Notes under the pieces: model-generated
Told to the model about the DNA's origin: nothing
Database searches by the model: none
What the model saw: the letters and a program-made list of their open reading frames with translations, nothing else
Origin: Candidatus Eiseniibacteriota bacterium
Lineage (GTDB): Bacteria > JAFGKV01
DNA: 10,787 nucleotides
NCBI GenBank assembly: GCA_025453925.1
Contig: JALOPK010000277.1
Span: forward strand, 1 to 10,787
Direction: 5' to 3'
Part shown: positions 1 through 7,697 of the stretch, one piece after another
Numbering within the stretch: the first letter of the stretch is position 1
How the letters are laid out: every line of letters begins with the position of its first letter
Program-made: the position numbers and the translations under genes

Positions 1-1428
1 TGGCACATGGAGGCGGCGGACACGACGGGAGTGGTGGGTGCCTTCCCGTCGCTGGCACTGGACGCGTCGGGGCTGCCTCGCATCGGCTACCAGGACCTGA
101 CCGACGAGGGGAACACCCAGGTGATGTATGCGGAGTATGATGGGGCAGCGTGGCACGTATGCCAGGTGGACACGGGAGGAGCTTTGGAATCACACGTCTC
201 GTTGGCGTTGGACTCCTCAGGCAACCCGCACATCAGCAACGACGCCTACTGGAGTGTCGTCAAGTACTCGTGGCGAGACGAGAGCGGGTGGCACACCGAG
301 ATCGCGGCTGAAGGCGAGTTTGTCGGATGGTTCACCTCGCTGGCGCTGGATGCATCAGGACGAGCGCACATCAGCCACGTCAAGCATTTCGCGGAGGACG
401 CAACGGCCTATGATCTCCTCTACACGCTCCGCGGGGAGACGGGGTGGCAGACACAGGAGGTAGACCACGAAGGGCTATTTGGGGCCGACCCTTGCTTGGC
501 GTTGGACTCGGCGGGCACCCCGCACTTCGCCTACATGGAGGGAAGGACGCTCTCACTGGGCTATGCGACCATGGGAGCCGCGGGGTGGTATACGGAGATC
601 GTGCACCCCGGGGGGCAGATTGGGCTATTCAGCTCCATCGCCATGGATTCATCCGACAATCCCCACATCAGCTACCACGAGTTCGTGCCCGGAGGGGGCT
701 TGGACTACGCCCGCAAAGACGCAGCGGGATGGCATATCGAGGTCGTCGATGCATCCGGCTGGGTAGGCCCGCACTCCTCCTTGGCACTGGATCAGAGGGA
801 ACGGCCGCACATCAGCTACCAGGATAGGGGGTGGTACAATCTGAAGTATGCCTTCAAGGGTGACGGGGGCTGGCACGTGCAGACGGTGGATGCTGCCGGC
901 GACGTTGGCACCTACACCTCGATTGCGGTGGACGCCTCCGGCTGCCCCCACATCAGCTACTACGACGGGACAAATGACGCCTTGAAGTATGCGTCATGGG
1001 AGGATGCAGGGTGGGAGATCGTGACCGTCGATGCATCGGCAGCTGTCGGATCGTACACATCGCTGGCGCTGGATGCCGACGGGCGTGCGCACATCAGCTA
1101 CTACGACGGGACGAACAGCGCACTCAAGTATGCCTACTGGGATGAGAATGGTCTGCATGTAGAGACGGTCGATTCGGAGGGAGAGGTCGGCATCGAGACG
1201 TCACTGGCGCTGGATGATGAGGGGAATCCGCACATCAGCTATCTGGACCACGGTGCCATGCACTATGGTCTCAAGTACGCCTACCGCGGGGCTTCCGGCT
1301 GGGTGGTCCAGAATCTGGCGTCTGACGCCGCGGATGGCACGTCCATCGATCTTGATGCGCCCGGCACCCCTCACATCGCCTACCACTCCCTCTACAGGGA
1401 TCTAAAGTACGCCCACCTCGGTGGGCCT
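1..1428 (+). repeat. Ten in-gene tandem repeats of about 141 bp
   Basis: Ten coding repeats begin with W at the start of each unit (for example WHVCQVD, WHTEIAA, WHIEVVD, WHVQTVD). They are degenerate at DNA level, except that units 7 and 8 share an identical 23-base stretch (949-971 and 1090-1112, exactly 141 bp apart), suggesting a fairly recent unit duplication or conversion. Confidence 0.85.
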
Positions 1429-1746
1429 GGCAGCATAAGCCTCTCCGCCCAGGTGGCCGGGAGTGTGCTGCAGCTTTCATGGCAACCCGTCAATCAGGTG
1501 TCGGCCTACTGGGTGTATGGCGCGTCGAATCTTCCGTGGTTCGTGCCGGGGTTCGCACCTGACTACCAGTACCGAATCACCACGTTGCCCTGCAGTGCCA
1601 CTACGTGGTCCAGTTCGAACGGTGTCGGTGATCCCGCCGCCAACTGGACCTACCTGGTGATGGCGGTGGATGCTGCCGAGCAGGAGCTGTGTCGCTCAAA
1701 CAGAGTCGGGGAGGAGGACTTCGAGGCGGAGATACCCCAGGAGTGA
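1..1746 (+). CDS. Secreted tandem-repeat (beta-propeller-like) protein with C-terminal FN3-like module, 5' end outside window
   Basis: The frame is open from base 1 and ends with TGA at 1744-1746, so 581 residues are visible and the N-terminus is missing. Residues 1 to about 476 are ten imperfect repeats of 44-52 residues. Each repeat reads roughly WHxExVD, then SLALDxxGxPHISY, then LKYAYRDxxG. That pattern of four short hydrophobic strands per unit resembles beta-propeller blades. Residues 477-581 form a different, FN3-like module (LSWQPVN, YWVYGASNLPWF, NWTYLVMAVDAAEQ) ending in SNRVGEEDFE. The gene at 1882-4281 has the same design and is clearly a paralogue. By analogy with it, a signal peptide should lie upstream of the window. 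The ligand or substrate is unknown. No catalytic motif is visible, so a binding or structural role outside the cytoplasm is an inference. The call as a real coding region is strong; the fold assignment is moderate. Confidence 0.9.
   Translation, partial: WHMEAADTTGVVGAFPSLALDASGLPRIGYQDLTDEGNTQVMYAEYDGAAWHVCQVDTGGALESHVSLALDSSGNPHISNDAYWSVVKYSWRDESGWHTEIAAEGEFVGWFTSLALDASGRAHISHVKHFAEDATAYDLLYTLRGETGWQTQEVDHEGLFGADPCLALDSAGTPHFAYMEGRTLSLGYATMGAAGWYTEIVHPGGQIGLFSSIAMDSSDNPHISYHEFVPGGGLDYARKDAAGWHIEVVDASGWVGPHSSLALDQRERPHISYQDRGWYNLKYAFKGDGGWHVQTVDAAGDVGTYTSIAVDASGCPHISYYDGTNDALKYASWEDAGWEIVTVDASAAVGSYTSLALDADGRAHISYYDGTNSALKYAYWDENGLHVETVDSEGEVGIETSLALDDEGNPHISYLDHGAMHYGLKYAYRGASGWVVQNLASDAADGTSIDLDAPGTPHIAYHSLYRDLKYAHLGGPGSISLSAQVAGSVLQLSWQPVNQVSAYWVYGASNLPWFVPGFAPDYQYRITTLPCSATTWSSSNGVGDPAANWTYLVMAVDAAEQELCRSNRVGEEDFEAEIPQE
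1625..1658 (+). repeat. 34-bp stretch identical to 4166-4199 in the paralogous gene
   Basis: The sequence encoding GDPAANWTYLV in the C-terminal module is base-for-base identical over 34 bp at 1625-1658 and 4166-4199. The surrounding module sequences are also similar. The rest of the two genes is far more diverged, which points to recent duplication or gene conversion of the module. Confidence 0.8.
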
Positions 1747-1881
1747 GTCGGATAATGCGAGCACAGGCCCGAAACGGCAGGAGGTGAGACGGACAGGAGA
1801 GCGACCACACGACGTGTGCCCAGAGGCACGGTGCCGATGGGCGGTAGCGTCACGTCAGGCACGACGGAAAGGGGTGAAACA

Positions 1882-4281
1882 ATGCTCAGGGGAACAGGCG
1901 CGGATCGAGGGTGGATACGAGCGGGGTGTGGGCCGCTGGTGCTCACGCTGGCGTTGACGTGGTGGACATGTCTGCTCTGTCCGACGCTCGTCGCCCAGAC
2001 CTGGGAGATCGAGGTGGCGGAGTACGGGAAGCAGTTTTCATTCATGACCAGCCGGAGTCTGCGAGTCGACACGGACGATCATGTGCACATCGCCTACGGG
2101 GAGAACAAGCTCTACTACGCGTTCTACGACGGACTCGCATGGCACTATGAAGTAGCCGACTGGACCTCCAACGTGGGCAAACACGCGGCCCTCGCGCTGG
2201 ACGCATCCGGGCAGCCGCATATCAGTTACTTCAGCTACGGGCCTCGAGGTCTGCAGTATGCGTTCCGGGACGGCGAGGGGTGGCACACCGAACTTGTGGA
2301 CTACTGGCTCGGGAGTTCCGGCAACTTCGGCGCGTTGGAGCTGGACGCAACGGGCTCTCCGCACATCAGCTATGTCGATGATGATGATGAATTGCTGAAG
2401 TATGCCCACCGAACGGCGTCGGGCTGGGAGATAGAAACACTGGACATGACGCACGTGGGTGGGTACACCGCGCTGGCACTCGATGCGATGGGGTATCCCC
2501 ATATCTCCTACTGTAACGACCTTGCCCATATGCGGAAGTATGCCTATCGAGACGGCGGCGGCTGGCACTATGACACGATGGGGTGGGGCGGCACGTTCGC
2601 CTCCATGGCCCTGGATGAGGCGGAGTTTCCTCATGTCGCCTACTCCGGCGGATCCGACTATGACGTGCGGTATGCGTACAAGGACAACTCGGGTTGGCAC
2701 CTCGAGACCGTGGCATCCACGGGGAGCATCACAGGGCACCTCTCGCTGGGCTTGGACGAATCCGGAACCCCCCACATCGGTTACAACGCACTGGTCATGA
2801 CGTACGCCCGACGAGAGGGCTCGACCTGGGTCTTCGAAGGCGTGGACCCGACGGCATTCCGGGGCTGGTATCCGTCCCTGGCGCTGGACAGCGCGGGGAA
2901 TCCCTGGCTGAGCTACCTACCTACGTCTCCAACCCAGGACTTGAAGTGTGCGCACCGGAGCGGAAATTCCCCGTGGCAGATCATGGTCGTTGACAAACGG
3001 AGGTACGGGGGTTTCTGCATATCACTGGCCCTGGACGGCGGGGGCTCTCCCCATCTCAGCCACTTCGATCTGGCTGCGCTCAATCTAAGGTATGTCCACA
3101 GAGACAACACGGGGTGGCATGGTATCACCGTTGACAGCCCTGGCGAGGTTGGCTGGTACTCGTCGCTGGTGGTGGATGCGGCGGACCGCCCCCACATCAG
3201 CTACTGCGACTGGACGAACTGGTCTGACGCCAACCTCAAGTATGCCTCCTGCGATGGAGCTGCCTGGCATCGCGAGACCGTGGACTCGTTCGGGAACGTG
3301 GGGACGTACACGTCACTGGCCCTCGACGTGTCCGGCTTCCCCCACATCACCTACTACGATGATACCAACGGCGACCTCAAGTATGCCCGAAACGATGCAG
3401 CCGGTTGGCACATCGAGACCGTGGACGGACCGGGGGACGTGGGCCAGTGGTCATCATTGGTGCTGGACACCGCGTCCTATCCGCATGTCAGCTACCTTGA
3501 CTCGACGGATTTCGACTTGAAGTACGCGTATGAGGACGTAGCCGGGTGGCACACGCAGACGGTCGACTCAATCGGGCGTGTCGGCGCCTACTCCTCCCTT
3601 GCCCTGGATGCCGACGGGTATCCGCATATCGGGTACTCCGACCATACGAATGTGGATCTGAAGTATGCGTATCGAGATGACGCGGGATGGCATGTCGAGA
3701 TGGTGGATGATGTGGGGCTCGAGAGCCCCGGCACGTACACATCGCTGAGGCTCGACGCATCGGGCCATCCACATGTCAGCTACTGCTCCTCTTCATTCAC
3801 CGAGCTGAGGTACGCCTATCGGGACGATACGGGGTGGCAGGTGTGGCCGGTGGATGCGGAAGGCGCGTCCGGTGCCTGGACGTCGCTATTCCTCGATGCG
3901 GATGGTAACCCACACATCGGATACGGGGGGCCTTATGGGGATCTGAGGTACGCGCGGCTCATCGGCCCTCACGTGATCCAGCTCAACGGCGTCCTTGCCG
4001 GTGACACCCTCCAGCTCACGTGGAGCGCGGTCACCGGTACCCAGGACTACTGGGTGTACGGTGCCGCCAATCTGCCGTGGTTCGTGCCGGGGATGGGGCC
4101 GGGGTATGCGTATCGGCTGACGATCCTGCCCACGACGACCACCACCTGGTCGAGTCCCAACGGCATCGGTGATCCCGCCGCCAACTGGACCTACCTGGTC
4201 ATGGCGGTCGGTGCTGCGGAGCAGGAGCTGGCACGCTCGAATCGGGTGGGAGAGGAGGACTTCGAAGCGGCGATCCCATGA
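1882..4281 (+). CDS. Secreted 14-repeat beta-propeller-like protein with C-terminal FN3-like module
   Basis: This gene encodes 799 residues. The ATG at 1882 is chosen because AAAGGGGTG sits about 7 bases upstream and a good signal peptide follows directly: positive residues, a hydrophobic core (LVLTLALTWW) and a likely cut after LVA near residue 38. An in-frame GTG at 1816 would put 22 polar residues before it. Mature residues 41 to about 694 consist of 14 repeats of 43-51 residues with the pattern WHxETVD, SLALDxxGxPHISY, LKYAYRD. Residues 696-799 are the FN3-like module ending in SNRVGEEDFEAAIP. Fourteen units would fit two seven-bladed propellers, or one large ring; this is an inference from the count. 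One blade contains a run of four GAT codons (2377-2388). The protein is probably exported across the inner membrane by Sec. No enzyme motif is visible. It resembles the partial gene upstream and lies 135 bp from it; the gap has small palindromes at 1806-1818 and 1825-1835 but no clear promoter. Confidence 0.93.
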   Translation: MLRGTGADRGWIRAGCGPLVLTLALTWWTCLLCPTLVAQTWEIEVAEYGKQFSFMTSRSLRVDTDDHVHIAYGENKLYYAFYDGLAWHYEVADWTSNVGKHAALALDASGQPHISYFSYGPRGLQYAFRDGEGWHTELVDYWLGSSGNFGALELDATGSPHISYVDDDDELLKYAHRTASGWEIETLDMTHVGGYTALALDAMGYPHISYCNDLAHMRKYAYRDGGGWHYDTMGWGGTFASMALDEAEFPHVAYSGGSDYDVRYAYKDNSGWHLETVASTGSITGHLSLGLDESGTPHIGYNALVMTYARREGSTWVFEGVDPTAFRGWYPSLALDSAGNPWLSYLPTSPTQDLKCAHRSGNSPWQIMVVDKRRYGGFCISLALDGGGSPHLSHFDLAALNLRYVHRDNTGWHGITVDSPGEVGWYSSLVVDAADRPHISYCDWTNWSDANLKYASCDGAAWHRETVDSFGNVGTYTSLALDVSGFPHITYYDDTNGDLKYARNDAAGWHIETVDGPGDVGQWSSLVLDTASYPHVSYLDSTDFDLKYAYEDVAGWHTQTVDSIGRVGAYSSLALDADGYPHIGYSDHTNVDLKYAYRDDAGWHVEMVDDVGLESPGTYTSLRLDASGHPHVSYCSSSFTELRYAYRDDTGWQVWPVDAEGASGAWTSLFLDADGNPHIGYGGPYGDLRYARLIGPHVIQLNGVLAGDTLQLTWSAVTGTQDYWVYGAANLPWFVPGMGPGYAYRLTILPTTTTTWSSPNGIGDPAANWTYLVMAVGAAEQELARSNRVGEEDFEAAIP
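2002..3963 (+). repeat. Fourteen in-gene tandem repeats of about 141 bp
   Basis: Fourteen coding units start at W41 and follow one another without linkers. Units 9-13 are closest to consensus (WHRETVD, WHIETVD, WHTQTVD, WHVEMVD). Units 5 to 8 are the most diverged; unit 5 is shortened and unit 7 has WLSY in place of HISY. Confidence 0.88.
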
Positions 4282-4446
4282 GGGGTAGCGCGAGGCGCAG
4301 TTGAGAGCGTCCAACGTTGGGTGTTGAACGAACCAGAGGACCAGGCGGGAACTGCAGTTATCGCTGATCAAGAAGTGAGCCCGTGATGGGGGAACCGAGC
4401 CTCCGCGAAGGGCACACGGAATCCAAGCCAATGAGCGAGTGCCACT
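4282..4446. other. Intergenic stretch between the 14-repeat gene and the IS110 element
   Basis: No credible gene is seen here. The annotated transposase frame runs through 4368-4468 only because a frameshift carried it past its natural stop at 4469-4471. This part is therefore most likely host flank read by accident. No hairpin followed by a T-run was found after the stop at 4281. Confidence 0.5.
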
Positions 4447-5672
4447 ATTCTGCTTCGTAAATACGAGTTCACGCGGCTCTTTCTTGGGGCTCGATCGAGA
4501 CGTGATGGCCAAGCGATGCAAGACGCTTTAGATGGTAGTTGGTAGATAGTTGCGAGTATCGAATGCGCGAGGGCCACCTGGGCGCGTTTCTTCCCCCTCC
4601 GCCGCGCAAGTCGACGGTGTTGCTCGGACAGATACGTGTTCCGGGTGCGACTGGCAGCCCATGCCACCTGGGTCAATGTGCCACGAAGCCACCGATTGCC
4701 TTTTGTCGTCTTTCCTGTCCGCCGCTTGCCTGCGCTCTCGTTGTTCCCCGGACATACGCCCGCCCATGATGCAAGATGTCCGGCGGTCGGAAACTGGCTC
4801 ATGTCCGTCCCTATCTCTGCAACGATTGCCTCCGCGCTGCGTACATCTATCCCCGGTACACTCACCAGCAGTTCTACTGCTTCCGTGAATCCCATGATGC
4901 CCCCCTCTCCCTCCCGCTCACCGCTCAGTTCGTCCGAGCGCAGCACAGTCTCGATCCGTGCCGTCAGTTCCGCCAGCACCTCTCCCAAGTACTGCCAATG
5001 CCTATACAGCATCCCCAGCATGAATCGATGATGGTCGGTTACCTTTCCCTCCAGCGCCATCCTCAGCTCCGGCAGTTTCCGCCGTAACCGGCGCCGCGCC
5101 TTCTCTGCCAGGACTCCCGCGTCGTCCTCTCCTCCGATGATTGCCGTGATCATCGCCTGCCCCGACGCCCCCATGATATCCGCCGCCACCGCACTCAGCT
5201 TGATGTTCCCATCCTCCAATACCTTCTGCATCCGGTTCACCACCCGCGCACGCTCTGCCGTCACCTGCGTCCGATGTCTCGTCAGATCCCGTAACTCCCG
5301 GTGCGGTCGCGGCGGTATGAAGCTCCCTCTCAGGAGCCCATGCTGCAACAGCTGCGCCAGCCACTGGCAGTCCCGTACATCCGTCTTCCGCCCCGGCACC
5401 TGCTTCACATGTTGCGCGTTGCAGATCAACACCTCAAACCGCCCCTCAAGCAGGTTGTACAACGGCTTCCAGTACACTCCCGTCGATTCCATCGCCACGT
5501 GCGTCACCCCCCACCCCTCCAACCACTCACCAAGCTCCACCAGCTCTCTCGTCATGGTCCCAAACGTCCGGGTCTCCTGCTTCACCCCGCCTCCCTCCGT
5601 CACCCGTACGTTCACCTTCACGTTCTGCTTGTGCACATCGATCCCTGCGCATCGCGCGTACATCACCTCCAT
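4368..5672 (-). CDS. IS110-family transposase, C-terminus replaced by frameshift
   Basis: The frame encodes 434 residues. The N-terminal RuvC-like DEDD domain is intact: D12 in GIDVHK, E62 in ESTGVYW, D98 and D101 in KTDVRD. The C-terminal Transposase_20 domain follows, with SVPGI at 271-275, AEIGTD at 285-290, SWAGVCPGNNESAGKRRTGK at 302-321 (S313 is the likely catalytic serine) and GNRWLR. ATG 5672 has AGGAG seven bases upstream. After residue 377 (ATIY) the sequence stops resembling the family. The usual GxxYxxLGxDYFD segment is absent and about 57 unrelated residues follow to the TGA at 4368-4370. The normal tail is found one frame over at 4540-4469. In this family the enzyme, guided by a bridge RNA, moves a circular intermediate without terminal inverted repeats. 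With this lesion the protein is probably inactive, although it is still open for translation. Confidence 0.9.
   Translation of the reverse strand: MEVMYARCAGIDVHKQNVKVNVRVTEGGGVKQETRTFGTMTRELVELGEWLEGWGVTHVAMESTGVYWKPLYNLLEGRFEVLICNAQHVKQVPGRKTDVRDCQWLAQLLQHGLLRGSFIPPRPHRELRDLTRHRTQVTAERARVVNRMQKVLEDGNIKLSAVAADIMGASGQAMITAIIGGEDDAGVLAEKARRRLRRKLPELRMALEGKVTDHHRFMLGMLYRHWQYLGEVLAELTARIETVLRSDELSGEREGEGGIMGFTEAVELLVSVPGIDVRSAEAIVAEIGTDMSQFPTAGHLASWAGVCPGNNESAGKRRTGKTTKGNRWLRGTLTQVAWAASRTRNTYLSEQHRRLARRRGKKRAQVALAHSILATIYQLPSKASCIAWPSRLDRAPRKSRVNSYLRSRIVALAHWLGFRVPFAEARFPHHGLTS
4447..4457 (-). repeat. 11-bp direct repeat, copy near the 3' end of the IS110 element
   Basis: CGAAGCAGAAT (minus strand) occurs here, 11 bases past the ancestral transposase stop, and again at 5733-5723, 51-61 bases upstream of the transposase ATG. 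Both copies have the same orientation. A chance match this long between two regions of about 270 and 190 bases is expected roughly once in eighty such comparisons under equal base use. Confidence 0.6.
4469..4540 (-). pseudogene. Out-of-frame remnant of the IS110 transposase C-terminus
   Basis: Read from 4540 downward, this frame encodes NYHLKRLASLGHHVSIEPQE followed by RAA and a TGA at 4471-4469. This matches the usual end of IS110 transposases (LxRRLxxLGYxVxLEP). It is shifted relative to the main frame, which leaves family resemblance at Y377 (4544-4542). The junction carries two near-adjacent CTACCA hexamers. The simplest reading is a deletion of the segment coding for the YxxLGxDYFD region, of a length not divisible by three. 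Confidence 0.75.
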
Positions 5673-5722
5673 GTCTCGTCTCCTCTCTGCTCTTCGCCAA
5701 GGAGGACATCGCGTGCTGTTCC

Positions 5723-5733
5723 ATTCTGCTTCG
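5723..5733 (-). repeat. 11-bp direct repeat, copy in the IS110 leader
   Basis: This is the partner of 4447-4457, in the same orientation. Its position, about 50 bases before the transposase start and same-sense with the sequence just past the transposase, is where a left donor guide would be expected. Confidence 0.6.
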
Positions 5734-5789
5734 CGCGCTCGCCGGATCCCGGCTGCAACACTCTTGGGTGCGGTTCGATGTCCACGCCA

Positions 5790-5798
5790 GACTCATAT
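5790..5798 (-). repeat. 9-bp direct repeat, inner copy in the IS110 leader
   Basis: ATATGAGTC (minus strand) is repeated at 5919-5911. It lies 57 bases upstream of the 11-bp repeat in the leader. A 9-base repeat within about 300 bases is not rare by chance (about one in six), so this alone is weak. Confidence 0.35.
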
Positions 5799-5890
5799 GC
5801 GGGCTCAACGCTCCAAGAATAGACGGCGTCTTCCCTTGGCGTCCTCTCCACAAGCTAGCGGACCCCACGACCATTTTCATCCTCTCAGGG

Positions 5891-5906
5891 TGTCGCCCCC
5901 GCGACA
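5891..5906. other. Perfect 6-bp stem hairpin with a four-base loop
   Basis: TGTCGC CCCC GCGACA on the + strand forms a GC-rich 6-bp stem. No T-run follows on either strand, so a terminator is unlikely. Its place at the start of the proposed bridge-RNA leader would suit a 5' stem-loop. Confidence 0.35.
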
Positions 5907-5910
5907 TGAC

Positions 5911-5919
5911 GACTCATAT
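5911..5919 (-). repeat. 9-bp direct repeat, outer copy possibly flanking the IS110 element
   Basis: This is the same ATATGAGTC as at 5798-5790. If the element begins just inside it, the copy would be the left target half-site and the inner copy the left target guide. The placement is speculative. Confidence 0.3.
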
Positions 5920-6010
5920 CCCTGCCCGTCCTATCCCGTCCCCCGAAGGAGCGTTTGCCCTCGTTGCATCCGGGAGGTACCTTGGGGATGCGACCTGATG
6001 GGCGTCCTAG

Positions 6011-6019
6011 AAGGAGGTG
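6011..6019 (+). promoter_or_regulatory. Strong ribosome binding site deciding a GTG start
   Basis: AAGGAGGTG lies with its GGAGG core six bases before the GTG at 6024. It is the best match to the anti-Shine-Dalgarno in this region. It favours GTG 6024 over the in-frame ATG at 5988 and TTG at 5955, either of which would place an arginine-rich stretch before the signal peptide. Confidence 0.7.
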
Positions 6020-6023
6020 GTCA

Positions 6024-7697
6024 GTGTCTCGAGTCCGGGTTCTCGCATCTGCATTCGTCTTGCTCTGGAGCGCGATCCCCGGAGTCTCCCACTCGTCCGT
6101 GCTGCTCCACGAAATCCTCCCGCCCACCCCACAGGCGTACGCCCATTTCGGCCAGGGCCTCGCCGGGGGAGGAGACGTCAATGGAGACCGCTACGATGAC
6201 ATCGTGGTGGGGGCTCCTGACTTCGACCTCGGGGGTGGACTCGAGAATGCCGGAGAGGCCTACGTCTTCAGCGGGAAGACGGGCACTCTCCTGTGGTCAT
6301 GCACCTCTCCGAACCCGGAGGCCGGGGCCCATTTCGGACTTGGAGTCACCATCATTCGAGACCTCAATGGTGACGGCTTCGACGACGTCGTGGTCGGCGC
6401 ACCTGATGAGGACATGGAGAGTGGCCTCACGGATGCGGGGGGGGTCTATGTGTTCTGCGGCCGGACGGGGGTACTCCTCATGACGATCGTCTCCCCGGAT
6501 CCCGAGGTGTCGGGGAAGTTCGGCCGCTCGGTTGCCGCCCCGGGAGATATGGATCTCGACGGTGTTGACGACGTTCTTGTGGGCGCGACCGGCGAGACGT
6601 CAGACGGGGGACTTGTCCCGGCTGGGCTGGTCTATGCGATGAGCGGGGTGACAGGATCGCATCTCTTGACCTTCGTGTCGCCGAACGAAGAGGCCAACGG
6701 CTGTTTCGGCCACGCCATCGCCGGGGCTGGTCACACCAACGCAGACGCATACCCCGATGTCATTGTCGGTGCTCCTTTTGAGAACAACCCGGGCTATCCG
6801 GAGAGCACCGGCCGAGCCTACCTATTTGACGGCCATACTGCAGCCGTCCGCTTCTCTTTCCAGGGGTATAACACCTCCGAGGACGACAACTTCGGATGGT
6901 CAGTCGCCGGGGGTGGTGATTCGGACGGTGACGGATACGACGATATGGCGATCGGAGCCCCGGGCCAGGACTACAATGGGGGACTTCAGTGGACGGACAC
7001 GGGCTGGGTGTACCGGTTCAGCGGCCTCACGGGTAGTAGTCGCCCTATCGATCTCGAGCTGTTTGAGGGGATATACATGTATAACGGCGAGTCGGTTGCC
7101 TGCATTGGTGACTGGGATCGCGACGGATTCGACGACGTTGCGTACGGAGAGCCTGGCCCTGGAGAGATTGATCTCTCGGGCGGAGTCGAGATCATCAGCG
7201 GGGCCACCGGCACCTGGATTGACTGGGCGGAGCCTCCCGCACCTGAGGGCTGGGGAGCGTTCGGAATGGTGCTCGCGGCAGTAGGAGACGTCAATGACGA
7301 CTGGTACCCAGACTTCGCCGTCACGTCGCTCTATGCCGATGTGATCTACGAGGATACGGGAAGAGTCTGGGTCATCGGCAGGCCCCATCCCACCATTTCC
7401 CTGTCGGCCCAGGCCTCCTCTACCCACTTCGTCCTGCTCACCTGGAACGCAGTTGACGGCGCGACACAGTACTGGATCTACGGAGCAGTGAACGATCCCT
7501 ACTTCGAACCGCAATCCGAGGGCCCCTCCAATAACCTGGTGGCCGTGACCTCCGGCACCGCGTGGATCAGCCTTGCGCCGACGGGAAACGAGGACGCCAA
7601 CTGGACGTATCTGGTGGTGGCGATGAACAGCGCCGGCGTGAGCCTGTGCAAGTCGAATCGCGCCGGCGAGTTCGACCGGGAGGTGGAATCGCCGTAG
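6024..7697 (+). CDS. Secreted FG-GAP (integrin-alpha-like) seven-bladed propeller protein with FN3-like module
   Basis: This gene encodes 557 residues from GTG 6024. A signal peptide (MSRVRVLASAFVLLWSAIPG...) covers about the first 24 residues. Seven FG-GAP repeats follow, each with FG, a calcium-loop motif and usually VGAP. The loops are DVNGDRYDD (51), DLNGDGFDD (113), DMDLDGVDD (175), HTNADAYPD (237), DSDGDGYDD (299), DWDRDGFDD (363) and DVNDDWYPD (422). Seven units match a complete integrin-type beta-propeller. Loop 4 starts with H instead of D and may bind calcium poorly. Blades 6 and 7 have lost the VGAP motif. Residues 457-557 (LTWNAVD, YWIYGAVNDPYF, NWTYLVVAMNSAG, SNRAGEFDRE) are homologous to the ends of the two repeat proteins upstream. 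FG-GAP proteins bind ligands at the cell surface; the ligand here is unknown. Confidence 0.92.
   Translation: MSRVRVLASAFVLLWSAIPGVSHSSVLLHEILPPTPQAYAHFGQGLAGGGDVNGDRYDDIVVGAPDFDLGGGLENAGEAYVFSGKTGTLLWSCTSPNPEAGAHFGLGVTIIRDLNGDGFDDVVVGAPDEDMESGLTDAGGVYVFCGRTGVLLMTIVSPDPEVSGKFGRSVAAPGDMDLDGVDDVLVGATGETSDGGLVPAGLVYAMSGVTGSHLLTFVSPNEEANGCFGHAIAGAGHTNADAYPDVIVGAPFENNPGYPESTGRAYLFDGHTAAVRFSFQGYNTSEDDNFGWSVAGGGDSDGDGYDDMAIGAPGQDYNGGLQWTDTGWVYRFSGLTGSSRPIDLELFEGIYMYNGESVACIGDWDRDGFDDVAYGEPGPGEIDLSGGVEIISGATGTWIDWAEPPAPEGWGAFGMVLAAVGDVNDDWYPDFAVTSLYADVIYEDTGRVWVIGRPHPTISLSAQASSTHFVLLTWNAVDGATQYWIYGAVNDPYFEPQSEGPSNNLVAVTSGTAWISLAPTGNEDANWTYLVVAMNSAGVSLCKSNRAGEFDREVESP

What the first reader, a model, noticed from the sequence alone, without database searches (positions are those of the whole stretch)
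5673..5919. Candidate bridge RNA with short matches to the element end and to the flank
The leader of this IS110 element, read toward the transposase, contains two matches with the geometry predicted for bridge-RNA guides. ATATGAGTC at 5798-5790 repeats a sequence at 5919-5911, which could be the left target flank. CGAAGCAGAAT at 5733-5723 repeats 4457-4447, just past the ancestral stop, which could be the left donor (right element end). Left guides are same-sense with the left target and left donor, and the target loop precedes the donor loop, as seen here. The 11-base match is unlikely by chance (about 1 percent by my rough estimate); the 9-base match alone is not. I could not find convincing right guides, and the two matches do not end in an obvious common core dinucleotide. 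The model is therefore incomplete.
Basis: partly seen in the sequence, partly recalled or inferred. Interest (0 to 1): 0.6.

Follow-up and report, generated by a model that had tools for sequence, protein, structure and literature searches.

The report
Bridge-RNA element with IS1111-type guide order
This is a jumping gene whose upstream guide RNA matches both its insertion site and its own end; a sister copy with a changed guide sits at a correspondingly changed site, and the guides run in the order reported for the IS1111 family although the RNA lies where the IS110 family keeps it.

Summary
A 96%-identical copy in another Fermentibacteria genome fixes the ends: element 4452-5912, flanked by core CT on the + strand (4450-4451, 5913-5914). 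Target-guide bases differ between the copies (ATATG / ATGTT) and each equals its own flank. The target is a genus-specific palindrome, ACTATTCTAATATTAGAATAGT: 65 and 61 sites in two genomes, none in a third of the same family. Joining L034's flanks restores it. Both lie on the 3' side of their loops; a missed guide, CTATTCT (5822-5816), lies on the 5' side of the target loop. Relatives in other phyla repeat this layout (swap tests p=5e-5 and 1.5e-4). Guide polarity is thus the published IS1111 order, while the RNA lies upstream as in IS110. Mini-elements of about 125 bp with both ends but neither transposase nor RNA occupy the same palindrome, suggesting mobilisation in trans. The window's transposase has a 77-bp deletion and is probably impaired. 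The 5' donor guide was not found.

The parts
4452..5912 (-). IS110-family element between the two core copies (1461 bp)
   Evidence: homology to L034 with unrelated flanks; joined L034 flanks give the uninterrupted repeat
4368..5672 (-). DEDD transposase/recombinase ORF, frame-shifted C-terminus, running 28 codons into the flank
   Evidence: Pfam PF01548 and PF02371; 77-bp deletion relative to L034 at 4541/4542
5695..5840 (-). approximate extent of the guide (bridge/seek) RNA, two internal-loop hairpins; true ends unknown
   Evidence: conserved leader layout in relatives and helices
5913..5914 (.). core dinucleotide CT (AG in transposase sense), left-end side
   Evidence: comparison of copies and mini-elements
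4450..4451 (.). core dinucleotide CT, right-end side
   Evidence: comparison of copies; two mini-elements have unrelated flank directly after it
5915..5919 (+). right half of the target as read on the + strand, CATAT
   Evidence: matches guide 5794-5798 exactly; covaries with the guide in L034
4443..4449 (+). left half of the target as read on the + strand, CACTATT
   Evidence: part of the genomic palindrome
5790..5798 (-). 3'-side target guide ATATG (5798-5794), core AG (5793-5792), handshake bases TC (5791-5790)
   Evidence: direct sequence; covariation with flank in L034; swap test p=5e-5
5816..5822 (-). 5'-side target guide CTATTCT (CTATT + core CT)
   Evidence: equals target positions 3-9 on the + strand; not matched in every relative
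5723..5733 (-). 3'-side donor guide CGAAGC, core AG, handshake bases AA, plus T
   Evidence: equals the right end at 4447-4457; swap test p=1.5e-4
5784..5829 (-). target-loop hairpin: outer helix ACGCC (5829-5825) / GGCGT (5788-5784), apical stem 5801-5814
   Evidence: predicted fold; helix recurs in relatives with other sequences, p=0.028
5704..5783 (-). donor-loop hairpin: outer helix GGACATCG (5783-5776) / CGATGTCC (5711-5704), apical stem 5741-5753
   Evidence: predicted fold; helix recurs in relatives with other sequences, p=0.00075
4444..4449 (+). half of the genus-specific palindrome ACTATTCTAATATTAGAATAGT (with core 4450-4451); the other half is absent at 5915-5930
   Evidence: 65 and 61 sites in two genomes

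Best explanation
The leader of this IS110-family element encodes a bispecific guide (bridge/seek) RNA. Its first loop pairs with the genomic target CTATT-CT-CATAT and its second with the element's joined ends, across a CT core, so that the DEDD recombinase can join them. Guides ATATG-AG-TC and CGAAGC-AG-AA lie on the 3' side of the two loops, and CTATTCT on the 5' side of the first. The reading strand of the site is therefore opposite to the transposase strand: the IS1111 guide order, in an RNA placed upstream of the transposase as in IS110. Natural retargeting is visible between two copies. Shown by sequence: ends, core, target repeat, guide-flank covariation, the same layout in relatives. 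Inferred: transcription, pairing, catalysis, the handshake role, and mobilisation of the mini-elements in trans.
For: Second copy L034 with unrelated flanks fixes the ends; guide ATATG versus ATGTT equals the respective flank; joined L034 flanks give a palindrome present at 61-65 sites per genome, 0 in the reversed control and in G002. Guide lengths, core CT and two further bases agree with the IS621 scheme. Swap tests over 7 lineages: own 8.5 versus swapped 5.1 and 5.7 bases, p=5e-5 and 1.5e-4. Five further elements, searched without hand anchoring, gave 9-base matches mostly at the corresponding leader positions. Donor-loop helix covaries, p=0.00075. Mini-elements with the same ends sit in the same palindrome.
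Against: No RNA data. Single-sequence folds are not better than shuffled. The 5'-side donor guide was not found, and the 5'-side target guide matches clearly only in the Fermentibacteria copies and, with wobbles, in some relatives. The copies differ at only two guide positions inside the match. Guide positions in the swap test were set after looking at the leaders. Two mini-elements (G001:C9, G000:C258) have right flanks that do not match the 5'-side guide.
Confidence: 0.85

Rival explanations
1. Ordinary IS621-type bridge RNA: the two matches are the 5'-side left target and left donor guides, and the right guides have decayed.
For: Upstream position of the RNA as in IS621; both matches are same-sense with the left flank and right end.
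Against: The matches lie on the 3' side of their loops; the partner target guide lies 5' of them; the core would be AG, against the nearly invariant T reported for IS621; TC and AA fit handshake positions only in the turned reading; relatives show the same layout.
Confidence: 0.08
2. A terminal-inverted-repeat transposon with ends ACTATTCT...AGAATAGT that moved the element or the mini-elements by another transposase.
For: Several copies have ACTATTCT at one side and AGAATAGT at the other.
Against: The same sequence exists uninterrupted as a 22-bp palindrome at more than 60 sites per genome; the window copy lacks the left repeat, and C9 and C258 lack the right one with breaks exactly at the core.
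Confidence: 0.03
3. The leader matches are chance or ordinary repeats without guide function.
For: The 9-mer alone has P=0.035 and the 11-mer 0.009 to 0.022.
Against: Covariation in L034 and the cross-lineage swap tests.
Confidence: 0.02

Closest known systems
IS621 and its bridge RNA (IS110 group; PMC11208160, PMC11208158)
   Same: DEDD recombinase with both Pfam domains, RNA upstream of the recombinase gene, two internal-loop hairpins, target loop before donor loop, CT core, insertion in a repeated extragenic palindrome
   Different: Guide polarity reversed relative to the transposase strand; longest matches on the 3' side; transposase clade distinct (about 27% identity over the N-terminal part) and longer (about 400-460 aa)
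IS1111 group with seekRNA (IS4321, ISEc11, ISPa11; PMC11187229)
   Same: Guide order: complement of the right target first, left-target match second
   Different: RNA upstream instead of downstream; no long terminal-proximal subterminal inverted repeat of the usual spacing; transposase clade distinct (about 24% identity to IS4321)
ISEc21/ISMch6 and ISEc11/ISXne4 natural retargeting (PMC11187229)
   Same: Sister elements whose guide and target differ together
   Different: Here within one genus, between copies 96% identical, at two guide positions
Laboratory mini-IS moved in trans (PMC11187229)
   Same: Ends only, no transposase or RNA, as in the natural mini-elements of about 125 bp here
   Different: The mini-elements here are natural, multi-copy and of at least two internal sequence types; their movement is not tested
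IS1111 in REP/QMITE2 of Coxiella burnetii (PMC5896051)
   Same: Insertion into a dispersed palindromic repeat
   Different: QMITE2 is the target, not an end-derived mini-element

Membership tests
IS110 family (sensu lato) | DEDD N-terminal domain PF01548 and C-terminal PF02371 | tested here: met
   E 2.7e-28 and 4.9e-22
IS110 family (sensu lato) | precise insertion at a specific site around a short core, no further target duplication | tested here: met
   joined L034 flanks restore the palindrome with one CT
IS110 group | long non-coding end and RNA upstream of the transposase | tested here: met
   240 bp upstream, little or none downstream
IS110 group | guide order: bottom-strand match 5', top-strand complement 3' (transposase strand as top) | tested here: not met
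   complement of the right flank lies 5', left-flank match 3'
IS110 group | transposase groups with IS621 rather than IS1111 members | tested here: inconclusive
   separate clade, few references, long branches
IS1111 group | guide order: top-strand complement 5', bottom-strand match 3' | tested here: met
   definition from PMC11187229
IS1111 group | RNA downstream of the transposase | tested here: not met
   guides are upstream in all relatives examined
IS1111 group | subterminal inverted repeats of 7-17 bp | tested here: inconclusive
   imperfect TCGTNATNACG in the window element; ATGAAAAT box mirrored at the right end in relatives but 45 bp inside the left end
Bridge/seek RNA | guide segments that covary with target and donor | tested here: met
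Bridge/seek RNA | two internal-loop hairpins with conserved helices | tested here: met
   helix evidence weak for the target loop
Bridge/seek RNA | all four guides identifiable | tested here: inconclusive
   three of four; the 5' donor guide was not found
Bridge/seek RNA | RNA is expressed and bound by the recombinase | not testable with these tools
   needs small-RNA sequencing or pull-down

The most novel reading that the evidence does not exclude
A third architecture of RNA-guided DEDD recombinases, spread over several phyla: upstream RNA with reversed guide polarity, an intermediate between the IS110 and IS1111 layouts, together with natural RNA-less mini-elements that use another element's guide RNA in trans.
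Probability: 0.6. Interest if true: 0.72.

Novelty: new variant of a known kind. Interest (0 to 1): 0.62.

Why it matters
Two published rules (RNA position and guide order go together in IS110 versus IS1111) come apart in this clade, which makes the proposed relocation of the RNA between element ends testable. The genus gives a compact natural experiment: known ends, a known target repeat, two retargeted full copies and mini-elements. A clade whose main guides are short and on the 3' side may also be useful for programmable recombination.

Tried and rejected
Rfam: no match at gathering threshold. Viral contigs: no relative. Orthologous empty site for the window copy in G001/G002: the flank is not conserved there. 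TIR-transposon model rejected because of uninterrupted palindromes. Single RNA folds: z-scores mostly near 0, used only for helix positions. A first, loosely anchored test of the target-loop outer helix gave p=0.13; the anchored one p=0.028, so that helix is weakly supported. 5'-side donor guide: the candidate CCCAAGAGU before the donor-loop apical stem agrees with the left-end sequence at only 4 of 9 positions plus wobbles; left open. Papers: no description of this combination was found in the held library, which lacks most subscription papers.

Full report
What is there. The window is contig C312 of a fragmented assembly (3.9 Mb in 502 contigs). Its same-genus relative G001 holds the record titled 'MAG: Candidatus Fermentibacteria bacterium' (L034). 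The minus-strand ORF 5672-4368 has both IS110 domains. L034 is 96% identical over window 4437-5914 and its flanks are unrelated. This fixes the ends.

The target. In transposase sense L034 reads ...CACTATTCTCATGTTAG|TCGTCATG ... CGAAGCAG|AATAGTGCC. Joining the flanks gives CACTATTCTCATGTTAGAATAGTG. The palindrome ACTATTCTAATATTAGAATAGT with up to 3 mismatches occurs at 65 sites in the window's genome and 61 in G001, at none in G002 of the same family, and the reversed control pattern occurs at none. The exact inner sequence ACTATTCTCATGTTAGAATAGT is listed uninterrupted at G001:C34 and C186. The window copy sits in a half site, CACTATT-CT-CATATCCC. So the site that matters appears to be about 12 bp around CT, and the palindrome is a common supplier of it.

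The guides. In the leader, in transposase sense, come CTATTCT (5822-5816), then ATATG-AG-TC (5798-5790), then CGAAGC-AG-AAT (5733-5723). In IS621 the 5'-side guide pairs with target positions 1-9, the 3'-side guide with positions 8-14, and two handshake bases after it pair with positions 6-7 of the other DNA (PMC11208158). Read on the + strand the target is CACTATT-CT-CATAT and the joined ends are CATGACGA-CT-GCTTCG. The 3'-side guides then cover core plus 5 (target) and core plus 6 (donor). The next two bases, TC and AA, are complementary to positions 6-7 of the donor (GA) and of the target (TT). This accounts for the otherwise untidy 9- and 11-base matches. L034 has ATGTT-AG-TC as guide and ATGTT-AG as flank: two substitutions in the matching part of the guide, the same two in the flank.

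Relatives. Leaders of relatives in Neobacillus, a planctomycete, Alicyclobacillus, Chlorohelix, Streptomyces and Caballeronia share the motifs GAGCYCG-guide-AG-NN and GAGCACG-guide-AG-NN, with small variations. Matching each guide to its own element end and to all the others gives a mean of 8.5 bases for own and 5.1 to 5.7 for swapped (p=5e-5 and 1.5e-4, 7 lineages). I had seen these leaders before fixing the guide positions, so the p-values are somewhat optimistic. Five further elements searched without hand anchoring (two Streptococcus, a mycobacterial plasmid, G056 and a second Neobacillus element) gave 9-base matches mostly at the corresponding leader positions, among other hits. The helices around both loops recur with different sequences: the donor-loop outer helix is significant by swap test (p=0.00075), the target-loop one only weakly (p=0.028). 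Single folds are not better than shuffled.

Polarity. Siddiquee et al. report that IS1111 seekRNAs lie downstream and carry the top-strand complement first, while the IS110 member ISEc21 has its RNA upstream and the reverse order (PMC11187229). Here the RNA is upstream but the order is that of IS1111. By eye, the region downstream of IS4321 from plasmid R751 shows AAAACGGAAA, the complement of its right flank, first, in agreement with that report. The transposase clade is separate from both IS621 and IS4321, with few references and long branches. Durrant et al. propose that the RNA moved between element ends in evolution; this clade is a candidate intermediate. That last step is inference.

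Mini-elements. At least eight loci carry about 50 bp of the left end and about 17-25 bp of the right end with about 50 bp of other DNA between, of at least two internal types (G000:C177, C258; G001:C71, C9, C275, C225 of one type; C46 and C15 of another; C256 possibly a third), several cut at contig ends. They lack transposase and RNA and sit at the same palindrome or half of it. The simplest reading is mobilisation in trans, as done in the laboratory with mini-IS. IS1111 insertion into a dispersed palindrome of Coxiella is a known parallel for the target.

State of the window copy. Relative to L034 it lacks 77 bp near the 3' end of the transposase gene, which shifts the frame and makes the ORF run 28 codons into the flank. 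The two Pfam domains are complete but the C-terminus is lost, so it is probably impaired; L034 has an uninterrupted ORF.

Not settled: RNA expression and RNA ends; the 5'-side donor guide; why some relatives show no 5'-side target match; whether this polarity has been noted in papers outside the held library.

Noticed in passing
G000 and G001, e.g. L135, L139, L145, L147, L148: The palindrome ACTATTCTAATATTAGAATAGT lies mostly between genes, and in several sites the symmetry continues outward for 5-10 bp with different sequences (5 of 23 sites with 5 bp or more): a hairpin with a fixed inner and a variable outer stem, of unknown function, found in this genus and not in G002.
   Followed up: partly
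G001:C46 and C15 (L056, L088) versus G001:C71 and C9 (L077, L080): Mini-elements of at least two internal sequence types share the same element ends, so ends-only derivatives arose or were reshaped more than once.
   Followed up: partly
L163 / L168, Streptococcus genome G061:C207: Two related IS110-family elements stand in direct tandem with a 1484-bp period, which shows a right-end/left-end junction directly.
   Followed up: no
window 1-1746, 1816-4281, 5955-7697: Three large predicted proteins around the element carry repeats (BNR-like, FG-GAP) and end in a similar stretch (NWTYLV...SNR.GE); the element sits between the second and the third.
   Followed up: no
leaders of L157, L035, L176, L177 and window about 5873-5882: A box ATGAAAATGG in the leader, well inside the left end, is mirrored by ATTTTCA at the right end in several relatives: an asymmetric subterminal inverted repeat; the mini-elements keep the left-end box.
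   Followed up: partly
window 4541/4542: 77-bp deletion relative to L034 between short similar sequences in the transposase gene.
   Followed up: partly
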